From: Kofleriaceae bacterium
GTDB taxonomy: Bacteria > Myxococcota_A > Polyangia > Haliangiales > Haliangiaceae
Direction: 5' to 3'
DNA length: 49,927 bases
NCBI GenBank assembly: GCA_018058095.1
Contig: JAGPCO010000051.1
Coordinates: forward strand, 1-49,927
Shown here: positions 17,886 through 24,181 of the stretch, one piece after another
Position numbering within the stretch: the stretch's first letter is position 1
Layout of the letters: every line of letters starts with the position of its first letter
Position numbers and translations under genes: made by a program
The notes under the pieces: generated by a model
Told to the model about the DNA's origin: nothing
Databases searched by the model: none
The model's input: only the letters and a program-made list of their open reading frames with translations

Positions 17886-17932
17886 ATCGTTCGCGAGAAC
17901 GATTGAGTTGCCCCTTCGCGGGCCCGTACGCT
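17886..17932 (+). promoter_or_regulatory. Promoter with perfect palindrome upstream of the 2080-residue gene
   Basis: The inverted repeat ATCGTTC-GCGA-GAACGAT (17886-17903) abuts the -35 box TTGAGT (17903-17908). An 18-base spacer leads to TACGCT (17927-17932), which ends six bases before the ATG at 17939. The GTTC-N4-GAAC core has the form of a dimeric repressor site. Binding there would cover the -35. The regulator is unknown. Confidence 0.5.
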
Positions 17933-17938
17933 TCGCGC

Positions 17939-20900: not shown

Positions 20901-23900
20901 TCGCCCACGCCCGCGCCGGCGCGGCGTACGGCGCCGAGGCCGCCCGCCCGGCCCCGGCCCCGGCCATGATGCGATCGGCGGATCGGACCTCGGCCGGCCG
21001 CCTGCGCGAGGAGATGCGCCTCGGGCAAGACAGGCTCACCCCGCTGTACGACTTCGTGCCGGTCGGGCAGCGCCTGCTCGCCAACCTGGTGCCCGACGCC
21101 GCCGGCGTGGTCCGGATCGCGCGCGCGGCGCTGGCCGGCGCGGCCACGGTGACGATCGAGCTGGTCGGGGCGGCGGCGTGCGCGCGCCAGCGGCTGCGCC
21201 TGGCACGGCCGACCGAGCCGATGCGGGACCTGCGCCTGGCGACCGGGCTCGATCCGGACGGCCACGCGATCGAGCGACAGCAGCTGCTGGCGGTCGCCGC
21301 CGGGGCCTCGATCACCCTGGCCAGCGCCGCCGCGGCCCGGTTCGAGGTGGTCGACAGCGTGGCCGCGGCGCACCGCTACCTGCTCGCGCTCGGGGTCGAC
21401 GAGGCGGTGCGCGAGTTCGCCTGGCTGACCCGCTGGCACGACCTGCCCGAGCTGGAGCGACGGGCCCGCTACAGCAAGCACACCTGCCACGAGGTCAACC
21501 TCTTCCTGGCCCAGCACGATCCCGCGTTCTTCGCCGCGGTGATCGTGCCGCACCTGCGCAACAAGGACCCGCGCACGTTCGTCGATCGCTACCTGCTGGG
21601 CGAGGACCTCCGGCCGTACCTGGCCCCGGCCCGGCTGGCCCGGCTCAACCTGATCGAGCGCGCCCTGCTGGCGCGCCGGCTCGGCGCCGACGGCGTGGCG
21701 CTGGCCCGGTCCATCGCCGACCTGGTCGATCTGCAGGCGCCCGACCCGGAGCGCGACGCGCGCCTGGTCGACGCGCTGCTCGGGGCCGGCGACGCCGCCG
21801 GTGGCGACGGCGAAGGCGGCGGCGGCCCACCACCCGCGCCGAGCGCGCCGCCAGGCCTGGGCGGGTCATCCGGCGTGCCGATGATGGCGCGCGCGCCCAT
21901 GGCGGTCTTCGCCGACGCGGCGGCCGAGGCCGACGACGAGTCGACCGGCGAGCACGAGTACCTCGACCTCGAGACGCCGAAGATGTCGAAGGCCAAGAAG
22001 CGGGCGGCGGCGCCCGCCCGCGCCGGGGGCGTCGGTGGTGGCGGCGCCGACGCCGGCGACCTGGCGCGCCGGACCCAGGCCCAGCCGATGTACCGTGGCG
22101 CCGACCTGACCCAGGAGTGGGCCGAGCAGAACTGGTGGCGGCGACGCGCCGACGACCACGACTGGGTCGCGGTCAACCGGTTCTGGCGCGACGTCGCCGG
22201 CAGCCGCGACGGCGCGCCCGTGGCCTCGCCTTTCGTCGGCGAGGCCATCGGCTCGCTCGGCGAGGCGCTGTGTGCGCTGGCGCTGCTGGCGGTGCCGCTG
22301 GCGCCGGCGCCGCACCAGGTGGTGACCTCGGGCGGCGACCGGATCTGGACCGCCGGCTCGGCCGCCATCATCGCCCGGCGCCAGATCGAGGAGGTGCCGG
22401 CGCCGAGCGCTGGCGCCGGCGGCCTGCTGCTCGGGCAGAACCTGCTGCGCGCCGACGATCGGGTCCGGTGGGACGGCGCCGAGCAGCGCGAGAACTACGT
22501 CAGCGGCGAGCTGCTGACCGACGTCGTCTACGTGGCCCAGGTCGCGGTGAGCAACCCGACCGGGTCGTCGATCACCGCCGCCGTGCTGACCCAGGTCCCG
22601 GTCGGGGCCATCACCGTCGGTGGCGGCGCGCCGCTGCGGACCCACCACGTCGTGCTCGGTCCGTACCAGACCCACGTCCTCGAGTACGGCTTCTACTTCG
22701 CCCAGCCCGGCCGGTTCAGCCACCTCCCGGCCCAGGCCGCGGTGCGCGGCGTGCTGGTGGCCTGGGCCAGTGCCTCCACCACCCGATGGACCGTGGTGCG
22801 CGAGCCGAGCGTGGTCGACGCCGAGTCGTGGCACCACCTGGCCCAGCGCGGCAGCCTCGACCAGGTCGTGGCCTTCCTCGGTCGCGACAACCTGGGCCGG
22901 ATCGAGCTCGACCGCGTCGCCTGGCGCCTGCGCGACCCGCGCTGGTTCGCCGCGGTCACCGCCGCGCTGGCCGCGCGCCACCACTACCACGACGGCCTGT
23001 GGGCCTACGCCCTGCTCCACGCCGATCGCGACCGCCTGGGCGAGTGGCTGGCCCACCAGGGCCACCTGCTCGAGCAGGCCGGCGCCGTCGACGGTGGCCT
23101 GGTGCCGACCGGCGAGGAGGACCAGGGCTGGCACGAGCACCTCGAGTACGGCCCGCTGGTCAACGCGCGCGCGCACCGGCTCGGCCGCTCGCTGCGGATC
23201 CTCAACGACGGCCTGGCCGCGCAGTACGCCGCGGCGCTCGAGTGGATGACCCAGCGCGTGCCGACCGCGCGCGATCGCCTGCGCGCCGCCCACTACCTGT
23301 TCGTGCAGGACCGGGTCGACGCGGCGCTGGCCCAGCTGGCCCAGGTCGCGCCGGGCGCGGCGCCGTGTGCGCTGCAGGAGGCCTACCTGCGCGCCTACGC
23401 CGCGGTGGCGACCGGCGACCTGGCGACGGCGCGGGCGGCGCTGGCGCCGTGGCTCACGCACCCGGTCGACCGCTGGCGCGATCGGGCCAGCGCGCTGCAG
23501 GAGGTGATCGACGAGGCCGGCGGCGGCCCGGCCGGCGCCGGCGCGCCACGACCGGACGACCGCGACCAGCGCCTGGCCGCGCTGGCGCAGGCCCAGCCCA
23601 GCTTCGAGCTCGCGCTCGAGGGTGGCAACCTCGTGATCGACCACACCAACCTCGGCAGCCTCGAGCTGCGCCTGCACCGGATGGAGCTCGAGCTGCTGTT
23701 CTCGCGCCAGCCGTTCATGCAGCGCGAGGCCGAGCGGTTCGCCTTCGTCGAGCCGGCGCTGCGCCTGCCGGTCACGCTGACGCCGACGCCGGGCAGCGCC
23801 GCCGGCCGGACCACGGTGGCGGTGCCCGCGGCGATGCGGGCCGACAGCGTCGTGATCGAGGCGGTCGCCGCCGGCACCCGCAAGGCGGTGGCCCGCTACG

Positions 23901-24181
23901 CCCACGACCTTCAGGTCATCACCGCGCACCACGCCGGCCAGATCGCCGTGCGCCGGGCCTCGACCGGGGCCGCCCTGCCGGCCGTCTACGTCAAGGTGTT
24001 CGCCCGCCAGCCGGGCGGCGTGGTCGCCTTCTACAAGGACGGCTACACCGACCTGCGCGGCCGGTTCGACTACGCCACCGTGTCGACCGACGACCTCGAC
24101 CGGACCGAGCGCTTCGCGATCCTGGTGGCCTCCGACGACGCCGGCGCGGTGGTGGTCGAGGCCGCCCCGCCGGCGCGCTGA
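17939..24181 (+). CDS. 2080-residue intracellular protein of unknown function with macroglobulin-like segments
   Basis: I do not recognise this protein. It has no signal peptide and no clear membrane span, so it is predicted to be cytosolic. Residues 1-390 are helical (Leu/Arg/Ala/Glu-rich). From about 395 there are beta-rich stretches, e.g. TLVVKVFRVDALAYFLARGE and GTYVVEAIGAGVSSRAVLRK, which remind me of macroglobulin (MG) domains. A Gly/Pro and charged low-complexity linker spans about 1280-1375, followed by LTQEWAEQNWWRRR and VNRFWRDVA. Another beta-rich region ends AFYKDGYTDLRGRFDYATVS near 2035. The thioester motif of true alpha-2-macroglobulins (CxEQ) is absent. Two halves separated by a linker suggest a scaffold or very large enzyme. 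It is single-gene with its own promoter. Confidence 0.85.
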   Translation: MDIEQLEAFALGDRAAALAQLVPGSEDHDYYRCLWLEQQGQLAQVQALLDEWPARHGHGERYSRLRARQLLRAAATLDPHALRDLALETGASLDHQPEQGDERERHPTALDPALLDETALVERAWRDRPDLSTLTEVGLWTLLTRPLDPTRRRLLLERLPHAGHPAVLDAIAADLTRPDSKGFGSLAIHATLTRDQLDELARRFPTLSASPWWVDAQVRRMRPAPHVDWDGDPEVRAGYVEALWQFCAGLAPVFNSLRAHVSWHRLDLARRQGRYDRALLVEHLRLPRRAGFAAEGLRRGLRDEALVDPGRDFAPLTGLARPGDDEELITDYLMHLLVDDDGADLVSYLDSAWLTGVLATARLLVGREPERWAHVLGPARAAALRDRIELAWTLDNPERLGADDPVTLALHVKNVPTLVVKVFRVDALAYFLARGEEVTTAIDLDGLAGSDEQVVTFGHGPMRRIRHELSLPACAAPGTYVVEAIGAGVSSRAVLRKGSAWALSRASAAGAVLTIVDERGALIAGASAWMSGREYRAGADGTIDLPFSTRGGIQRLAVVAGGVCEVQSVVVPVEQVTLALDVAVEREALVASGDAAAVLRLGLTIGGAPAPLQLLEGARVEIAIRDGLGLSTSKDEPLPLRDDRDAVVRWRMPADPTEVVITVRGKVRVLSTQQDLELQASHTMPVRGVARGDATEALYLTDAADGYRLSVLGRTGEPKPRRVVTLTLWHQAVTRQVEATVETDDEGAIALGPLAGVTCLVAATAHGRAEFVLRRWALPTRLTWVEGDEVGLPLPIGLPGEAARAMARLFEVRAGAFAADDSAHLRAELGALTAPTLPAGHYQLVLPGQVPVTMMVMPRQAARHGRIVALPTGQAEVSTTTPWLREVQFEDDALVLRLGGADGATRVHVAATRFASEPAGTGFGLGPEPGPLQPHHARHGAYVSGRELGDEYRYVLERKGAPRRTGILAERPPLLLNPWAMRATSTAVAHARAGAAYGAEAARPAPAPAMMRSADRTSAGRLREEMRLGQDRLTPLYDFVPVGQRLLANLVPDAAGVVRIARAALAGAATVTIELVGAAACARQRLRLARPTEPMRDLRLATGLDPDGHAIERQQLLAVAAGASITLASAAAARFEVVDSVAAAHRYLLALGVDEAVREFAWLTRWHDLPELERRARYSKHTCHEVNLFLAQHDPAFFAAVIVPHLRNKDPRTFVDRYLLGEDLRPYLAPARLARLNLIERALLARRLGADGVALARSIADLVDLQAPDPERDARLVDALLGAGDAAGGDGEGGGGPPPAPSAPPGLGGSSGVPMMARAPMAVFADAAAEADDESTGEHEYLDLETPKMSKAKKRAAAPARAGGVGGGGADAGDLARRTQAQPMYRGADLTQEWAEQNWWRRRADDHDWVAVNRFWRDVAGSRDGAPVASPFVGEAIGSLGEALCALALLAVPLAPAPHQVVTSGGDRIWTAGSAAIIARRQIEEVPAPSAGAGGLLLGQNLLRADDRVRWDGAEQRENYVSGELLTDVVYVAQVAVSNPTGSSITAAVLTQVPVGAITVGGGAPLRTHHVVLGPYQTHVLEYGFYFAQPGRFSHLPAQAAVRGVLVAWASASTTRWTVVREPSVVDAESWHHLAQRGSLDQVVAFLGRDNLGRIELDRVAWRLRDPRWFAAVTAALAARHHYHDGLWAYALLHADRDRLGEWLAHQGHLLEQAGAVDGGLVPTGEEDQGWHEHLEYGPLVNARAHRLGRSLRILNDGLAAQYAAALEWMTQRVPTARDRLRAAHYLFVQDRVDAALAQLAQVAPGAAPCALQEAYLRAYAAVATGDLATARAALAPWLTHPVDRWRDRASALQEVIDEAGGGPAGAGAPRPDDRDQRLAALAQAQPSFELALEGGNLVIDHTNLGSLELRLHRMELELLFSRQPFMQREAERFAFVEPALRLPVTLTPTPGSAAGRTTVAVPAAMRADSVVIEAVAAGTRKAVARYAHDLQVITAHHAGQIAVRRASTGAALPAVYVKVFARQPGGVVAFYKDGYTDLRGRFDYATVSTDDLDRTERFAILVASDDAGAVVVEAAPPAR

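What the first reader, a model, noticed from the sequence alone, without database searches (positions are those of the whole stretch)
17886..24181. 2080-residue cytosolic protein of unknown function behind a palindromic promoter
The largest gene of the window encodes a giant protein with no signal peptide, beta-rich stretches that recall macroglobulin domains, a low-complexity middle linker and a second large half, but without the thioester motif of alpha-2-macroglobulins. The upstream ATCGTTC-GCGA-GAACGAT palindrome sits against the -35 box, so a dimeric regulator probably controls it. It stands alone rather than in an operon.
Basis: partly seen in the sequence, partly recalled or inferred. 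Interest (0 to 1): 0.6.

Follow-up and report, generated by a model that had tools for sequence, protein, structure and literature searches.

The report
Apparently intracellular macroglobulin lacking thioester motif
A soil bacterium of the Myxococcota carries a giant protein that no sequence library recognises but whose predicted shape is that of alpha-2-macroglobulin, a molecular trap for proteases normally kept outside the cytoplasm; here it lacks any export signal and the usual chemical hook, and the 'palindromic promoter' in front of it turns out to be a copy of a small mobile repeat.

Summary
The gene is real: ATG 17939 to stop 24181, 2080 aa, with uninterrupted orthologues (about 35-44% identical) in its genus, three other genera of the sampled class and one family of another class. 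It has no Pfam, NCBIfam, PADLOC or PDB-sequence match, while two exported thioester macroglobulins of the same genome hit nine Pfam models each. AlphaFold models of both halves match bacterial alpha-2-macroglobulin (A2M) in collinear order: residues 385-1092 match NIE-MG1...MG7, the beta parts of 1102-1621 match CUB to the C-terminus. Unlike known A2Ms it starts with a helical module instead of a signal peptide, ends with a second helical (TPR-like) module plus a second NIE-MG1 pair, and has an invariant Cys-His-Glu-(Leu/Val) but no CxEQ. A disordered, variable segment (990-1036) sits where the bait region should be. Most likely an intracellular, thioester-free macroglobulin that traps or senses proteases non-covalently (precedent: MagD); function is inferred. 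The palindrome is not a gene-specific operator: it is the inner hairpin of a 159-bp MITE-like repeat with at least 40 copies in this genome, none in eight congeners searched; this copy is truncated and absent before orthologues. Fold well supported; mechanism plausible, untested.

The parts
17939..24181 (+). CDS of the giant A2M-fold protein, 2080 aa, ATG start
   Evidence: ORF and translation; orthologues with conserved start and uninterrupted frames; start fixed by in-frame stops at codon -4 in L003, L004, L029
17939..19093 (+). N-terminal all-helical module, residues 1-385; TPR-like at best
   Evidence: model m52bea724bc94; TPR_19 reaches E 0.0097 in 2 of 16 relatives, below certainty; fold not tested alone
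19091..21214 (+). NIE-MG1 to MG7-like beta-domain array, residues 385-1092
   Evidence: collinear with Salmonella/E. coli A2M residues 155-1019, Z 12.1-13.8, up to 462 aligned residues; Foldseek E 6e-11 to A2M superfamily; profile-profile 653 columns, E 1.4e-4 against canonical A2Ms
20906..21046 (+). disordered, variable segment residues 990-1036 at the place of the A2M bait region
   Evidence: low pLDDT from about 950 to 1034; variable in sequence in 16 orthologues; bait role inferred from position before the MG7-like strands
21236..21808 (+). CUB-like strands then helical insert at the position of the thioester domain (residues 1100-1290)
   Evidence: secondary structure of m9a0be852c01b; beta parts match A2M CUB; helical part shows no sequence match to TED
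21485..21493 (+). invariant Cys1183-His1184-Glu1185 (followed by Leu/Val), the only Cys conserved in all orthologues that cover it
   Evidence: alignment, also in L035; equivalence to CxEQ is inference
21794..22063 (+). low-complexity disordered linker, residues 1286-1375, inside the helical insert
   Evidence: pLDDT < 50 for most of it; length 89-129 residues between flanking anchors in orthologues
22301..22813 (+). second CUB part and C-terminal A2M beta domain, residues 1455-1625
   Evidence: VIA: 122-125 residues at 2.3-2.6 A to A2M chains up to 1644-1653
22826..23533 (+). second helical module, TPR-like, residues 1630-1865
   Evidence: VIA to designed TPR 8chy, Z 9.5, and O-GlcNAc transferase TPR 1w3b, Z 9.4; such Z values are common for helical repeats
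23576..24169 (+). second, C-terminal NIE-MG1 pair, residues 1880-2077
   Evidence: VIA to E. coli A2M NIE-MG1 4zjh, Z 14.1, 183 residues, 3.0 A; weak profile similarity to residues 385-531
17812..17925 (+). 5'-truncated copy of the dispersed 159-bp inverted-repeat (MITE-like) element
   Evidence: covers bases 51-159 of the element at 89%; alignment of copies
17886..17903 (.). the reported palindrome, inner hairpin of that element's right arm

Best explanation
The gene encodes a divergent alpha-2-macroglobulin-fold protein that stays in the cytoplasm. Residues 385-1621 reproduce the bacterial A2M chain from NIE-MG1 through MG7, CUB, a helical insert in the thioester-domain position and the C-terminal beta domain (fold: shown by prediction). 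A helical module precedes it, and a second helical, TPR-like module plus a second NIE-MG1 pair follow it (shown by prediction). It cannot make the usual thioester because the CxEQ glutamine is absent (shown from sequence). Inferred mechanism: cleavage of the disordered segment 990-1036 by a protease loose in the cytoplasm makes the MG ring rearrange and hold the protease non-covalently, as reported for the thioester-less MagD, while the helical end modules bind partner proteins or assemble the complex. Steps not shown: cytoplasmic location, bait cleavage, trapping, partner binding.
For: Foldseek on the N-half model (pTM 0.75): all of the best 16 hits are A2M/complement/TEP/CD109, E from 6e-11. 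VIA: 385-1092 collinear with Salmonella A2M 155-1011, up to 462 residues aligned with E. coli A2M; C-half top matches are bacterial A2Ms, the C-terminal pair at Z 14.1 to NIE-MG1. Independent sequence support: profile-profile alignment to canonical A2Ms of this and related genomes, 381 columns E 6.8e-4 and 653 columns E 1.4e-4, in register from MG1 on. No signal peptide, start fixed by upstream stops in orthologues. Disordered, variable segment at the bait position. Thioester-less A2M MagD traps a protease non-covalently (PMC5764988). Orthologues are conserved as single complete genes.
Against: No sequence library recognises the protein as A2M, while two canonical A2Ms of the same genome hit nine Pfam models each. 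The large-scale superpositions have high rmsd (13-15 A), so domains match better than their mutual arrangement. The helical insert is not shown to be a thioester domain. C-half model confidence is moderate (pTM 0.44). The bait region is placed by position only; no protease or partner gene is linked. The profile E-values are for a single comparison and HH probability is only 27-53%.
Confidence: 0.45

Rival explanations
1. The A2M fold is used here only as a rigid scaffold: an intracellular hub whose two helical end modules and two NIE-MG1 pairs bind partners (for example kinase-controlled complexes), with no protease trapping at all.
For: Two helical modules and a duplicated NIE-MG1 pair are not needed for trapping; the thioester is lost; a Ser/Thr kinase gene lies directly downstream in two orthologous loci and a 63% identical kinase lies nearby in the window; the best conserved stretch is the C-terminal pair, not the bait-like segment.
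Against: A disordered variable segment is kept at the bait position in every orthologue that covers it; the kinase is adjacent in only some members of one family.
Confidence: 0.35
2. It is an exported macroglobulin that uses a non-classical route, so its place of action is the envelope as for other A2Ms.
For: The characterised bacterial A2Ms are envelope or periplasmic proteins (PMC5764988, PMC3328433).
Against: No signal sequence or lipobox in the window protein or at the conserved start of the orthologues, start fixed by stops; no secretion gene seen next to it; canonical A2Ms of the same genome do carry export signals of lipoprotein type.
Confidence: 0.15
3. One reading: the palindrome is the operator of a dimeric regulator dedicated to this gene and a small regulon.
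For: Exact palindrome, 35 bp before the start; many genomic copies, several a short way before start codons.
Against: All copies belong to a longer inverted-repeat element found at gene ends as well as starts, with 3-bp flanking duplications; eight congeners searched lack the element although the genus keeps the gene; no promoter consensus.
Confidence: 0.05

Closest known systems
Bacterial type I alpha-2-macroglobulin (E. coli YfhM/ECAM, Salmonella A2M; Pfam MG2, bMG3, bMG6, A2M_BRD, A2M, TED_complement, bMG10)
   Same: Collinear fold from NIE-MG1 to the C-terminal beta domain; disordered segment where the bait lies
   Different: No signal peptide or lipobox, no CxEQ, helical insert smaller and not recognisable as TED, no Pfam match, helical modules at both ends and a second NIE-MG1 pair
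Type II bacterial A2M (MagD of Pseudomonas aeruginosa, YfaS class)
   Same: A2M fold without CxEQ; shows that trapping can be non-covalent (PMC5764988)
   Different: MagD is periplasmic, has a signal peptide and sits in a six-gene operon; nothing like that operon is next to the gene here
Eukaryotic A2M superfamily (CD109, A2ML1, C3/C5, TEP1)
   Same: Best Foldseek hits of the N-half
   Different: Extracellular, thioester in most members, no TPR-like modules (own knowledge); about 10% identity
Bacterial miniature inverted-repeat elements (MITEs)
   Same: Upstream element: short, 20-bp perfect terminal inverted repeats, 3-bp flanking direct repeats in 5 of 9 full copies, many copies
   Different: Own sequence; no parent transposase identified here

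Membership tests
Alpha-2-macroglobulin superfamily (fold level) | Array of MG domains in the order of A2M, ending in CUB and a C-terminal beta domain | tested here: met
   VIA and Foldseek, collinear ranges on predicted models
Alpha-2-macroglobulin superfamily (fold level) | Sequence match to Pfam A2M-domain models | tested here: not met
   No Pfam hit in any member; MG2 at E 0.043 in 2 of 16 relatives only; canonical paralogues hit nine models
Alpha-2-macroglobulin superfamily (fold level) | Profile-level sequence similarity to canonical A2Ms in register | tested here: met
   653 columns, E 1.4e-4 for one comparison, N-part only; marginal by itself
Type I bacterial A2M | CxEQ thioester motif | tested here: not met
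   C-H-E-(L/V) in all orthologues; five canonical genes of the genome have CxEQ
Type I bacterial A2M | Thioester domain of alpha/alpha toroid fold | tested here: inconclusive
   Helical insert in the right place, no sequence similarity to TED, not folded alone
Type I or II bacterial A2M | Export signal, periplasmic location | tested here: not met
   No signal peptide; start fixed by upstream stops. Location itself not tested
Type II bacterial A2M (MagD) | Six-gene mag operon | tested here: not met
   Neighbours are extensin-like, AbiEii-like, kinase, SulP, SMI1/KNR4 genes
Type I or II bacterial A2M | Bait region cleaved by a protease that is then trapped | not testable with these tools
   Only a disordered variable segment at that position
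TPR proteins | Tetratricopeptide helical hairpins in the end modules | tested here: inconclusive
   TPR_19 E 0.0097 in 2 relatives; VIA Z 9.5 to TPR proteins for residues 1755-1867
MITE (upstream element) | Terminal inverted repeats, target-site duplication, multi-copy | tested here: met
   20-bp perfect ends, 3-bp duplications in 5 of 9 full copies, at least 40 places
MITE (upstream element) | Parent transposase with the same ends | not tested

The most novel reading that the evidence does not exclude
A first family of intracellular, thioester-free macroglobulins: a bait-and-trap (or bait-and-signal) machine moved from the envelope to the cytoplasm, with TPR-like arms and a second NIE-MG1 pair as partner-binding parts, restricted to some Myxococcota.
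Probability: 0.4. Interest if true: 0.72.

Novelty: new variant of a known kind. Interest (0 to 1): 0.52.

Why it matters
The characterised bacterial macroglobulins act outside the cytoplasm, and I found no paper that names an intracellular one in the library searched. A conserved cytoplasmic A2M without a thioester would mean the fold can guard or sense proteolysis inside the cell, and the loss of the thioester, which would be at risk in a reducing cytoplasm, would make sense. It also shows that A2M-fold proteins can be missed by current sequence libraries. Separately, the palindrome lesson is practical: a striking hairpin before a start codon can be a mobile repeat rather than an operator.

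Tried and rejected
(1) Sequence libraries: Pfam, NCBIfam, PADLOC, PDB sequences gave nothing for the protein; a weak ParB-CE hit (E 0.06-0.17) is chance. (2) hhalign against the single sequence of E. coli YfhM gave nothing; the profile of related canonical A2Ms did. (3) Aligning the Cys-His-Glu motif with CxEQ by profile failed, so I treat it as inference. (4) Functional link to the C39-like gene at 34196-35158: it occurs in families without the giant gene and is missing in two genomes of another family (f10) that have it, so nearness is shared gene order, not evidence of partnership. (5) Palindrome as operator: rejected. (6) Rfam: nothing above chance at the upstream region. (7) Plasmid tblastn: no match. 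(8) Several genome searches failed on the server side, so sampling outside the phylum was not possible beyond the genome contigs pattern scan, which finds close relatives only. (9) Structure prediction was limited to two jobs, so the helical end modules and the insert were not folded alone; the VIA lists say nothing about residues 1-385.
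Full report
Observation. The gene runs from ATG 17939 to the stop ending at 24181 and encodes 2080 residues. The finding's start, 17886, is the palindrome. The frame is open to 17342, but the upstream part lies antisense to an extensin-like gene (16948-17739, minus; PF06904 E 2.7e-13) and is not conserved: orthologues start at the same M-(D/E)-(L/I)-E and three have an in-frame stop four codons earlier. So there is no hidden signal peptide. The most hydrophobic 19-residue stretch anywhere averages 1.91, in the middle of the chain.

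Distribution. A scan of one genome per species gave three orthologues. Genome searches gave matches in the window's genome and in all 11 congeners examined (some split by contig ends), none in the eight other relatives; 10 of 96 genomes of the class, in three genera of the same family and one genus of another; and 3 of 140 across the phylum, one of them in another class (L035). It is a patchy Myxococcota family, single copy as far as the fragmented assemblies show. One relative is titled a Kofleriaceae bacterium. Orthologues are about 35-44% identical over the full length, with no internal stops.

Fold. Sequence libraries are silent. Two AlphaFold models were made from 16-row alignments: residues 1-1092 (pLDDT 82.5, pTM 0.75) and 1085-2080 (pLDDT 72.9, pTM 0.44). 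The first finds CD109, A2ML1, A2M, TEP1 and complement from Foldseek E 6e-11; VIA aligns 385-1092 with Salmonella/E. coli A2M 155-1019 (Z 12.1-13.8, up to 462 residues; rmsd 13-15 A because domain arrangement differs). The second finds bacterial A2M best: residues 1880-2077 match the NIE-MG1 pair (4zjh, Z 14.1, 183 residues, 3.0 A) and the beta parts of 1102-1621 match A2M from about 1115 to the C-terminus (Z 11-12, 122-125 residues at 2.3-2.6 A). Thus the A2M chain from NIE to the end lies in order in residues 385-1621, preceded by a helical module and followed by a second helical module and a second NIE-MG1 pair. The two NIE-MG1 regions resemble each other weakly by profile.

Independent sequence test. 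The window's genome also holds five canonical A2M genes (PF00207), all with CxEQ; the two whose start codon could be read plainly have lipoprotein-type leaders and hit nine Pfam models each. A profile of these and related canonical A2Ms, compared with the new family, aligns 381 columns (E 6.8e-4) and, restricted to the MG array, 653 columns (E 1.4e-4; probability 53%) in the register expected from the structures. These are single-comparison values, supportive but not decisive alone. The helical insert in the thioester-domain position gives no such signal.

Active-site and bait positions. Of nine cysteines only Cys1183 is present in every orthologue covering the site, always as Cys-His-Glu-(Leu/Val) after Tyr-Ser-(Lys/Arg) or a near variant, at the N-terminal end of a helix early in the insert. 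In A2M the thioester Cys-x-Glu-Gln sits at a comparable place; whether this is a relic is inference. Without the Gln no thioester can form. Residues 950-1034 are predicted disordered, and 990-1036 vary in sequence between the conserved SGR(D/E)-GDEYRY...LLLNPW block and the YDF...ANL-PD strands, the place of the bait region in A2M. A second disordered linker lies at 1286-1375.

How it may work. Inference from the fold: a cut in the exposed segment lets the ring rearrange. MagD, which lacks CxEQ, is cut in its bait region and keeps the protease non-covalently (PMC5764988), so the missing thioester does not exclude trapping. The two helical modules and the second NIE-MG1 pair, which I know of in no described A2M, would bind partners. 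A scaffold without trapping remains nearly as likely. No gene partner can be named: gene order (SulP transporter, SMI1/KNR4 protein, C39-like protein) is shared within one family, but the C39-like gene is found without the giant gene and vice versa; a kinase gene follows directly only in L003 and L004.

The palindrome. ATCGTTC-N4-GAACGAT occurs 11 times exactly and 7 times with one mismatch in the genome, never in the reversed control. The 18 sites lie in a longer repeat. Its full form is 159 bp, with 20-bp perfect inverted ends, and folds back on itself along its length (z -11.3). Five of nine full copies have identical 3-bp flanks, TAA or TCA. At least 40 places were found in this genome, none in the eight congeners searched and seven weak ones in a member of another family of the order (candidates were scored only in part, so counts are lower bounds). 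Five copies are 98-100% identical to the query copy, so it spread recently. It lies a short way before some start codons, but also at stop codons and convergent junctions. The window copy (17812-17925) lacks its left end. It is a MITE-like element, not an operator of this gene, although an effect on transcription of this one gene is not excluded.

Verdict. A well-supported new, highly divergent branch of the A2M fold with a new domain layout and an apparently cytoplasmic place; function inferred. The regulatory part of the finding is explained away.

Noticed in passing
17812-17925 (window copy); full copies e.g. L081, L065: 159-bp MITE-like inverted-repeat element, at least 40 places in this genome, none in eight congeners searched, 3-bp flanking duplications; carries the reported palindrome.
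   Followed up: yes
L048-L052 (window genome), L053-L056 (relatives): Five canonical CxEQ macroglobulin genes in the window's genome; tandem pairs or triplets of A2M genes in related genomes (e.g. three in a row in L053).
   Followed up: partly
34196-35158: C39-peptidase-like protein (weak DUF3335/DUF6885 match), 67-73% identical in relatives and kept near the giant gene in one family, but not co-occurring with it elsewhere.
   Followed up: yes
25270-26496: Ser/Thr kinase on the minus strand; its 63% identical relative follows the giant gene on the same strand after 15-18 bp in L003 and L004.
   Followed up: partly
24211-24843: AbiEii-like nucleotidyltransferase (PF08843 E 3.9e-13) next to a 98-aa protein without match, between the giant gene and the kinase; not seen at this place in the other loci read.
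   Followed up: no
14570-16890: Two neighbouring SPFH/Band 7 domain genes on the minus strand beyond the extensin-like gene.
   Followed up: no
L072:3030-3100: A head-to-head form of the repeat: two right ends joined as a near-perfect inverted repeat flanked by TAA.
   Followed up: no
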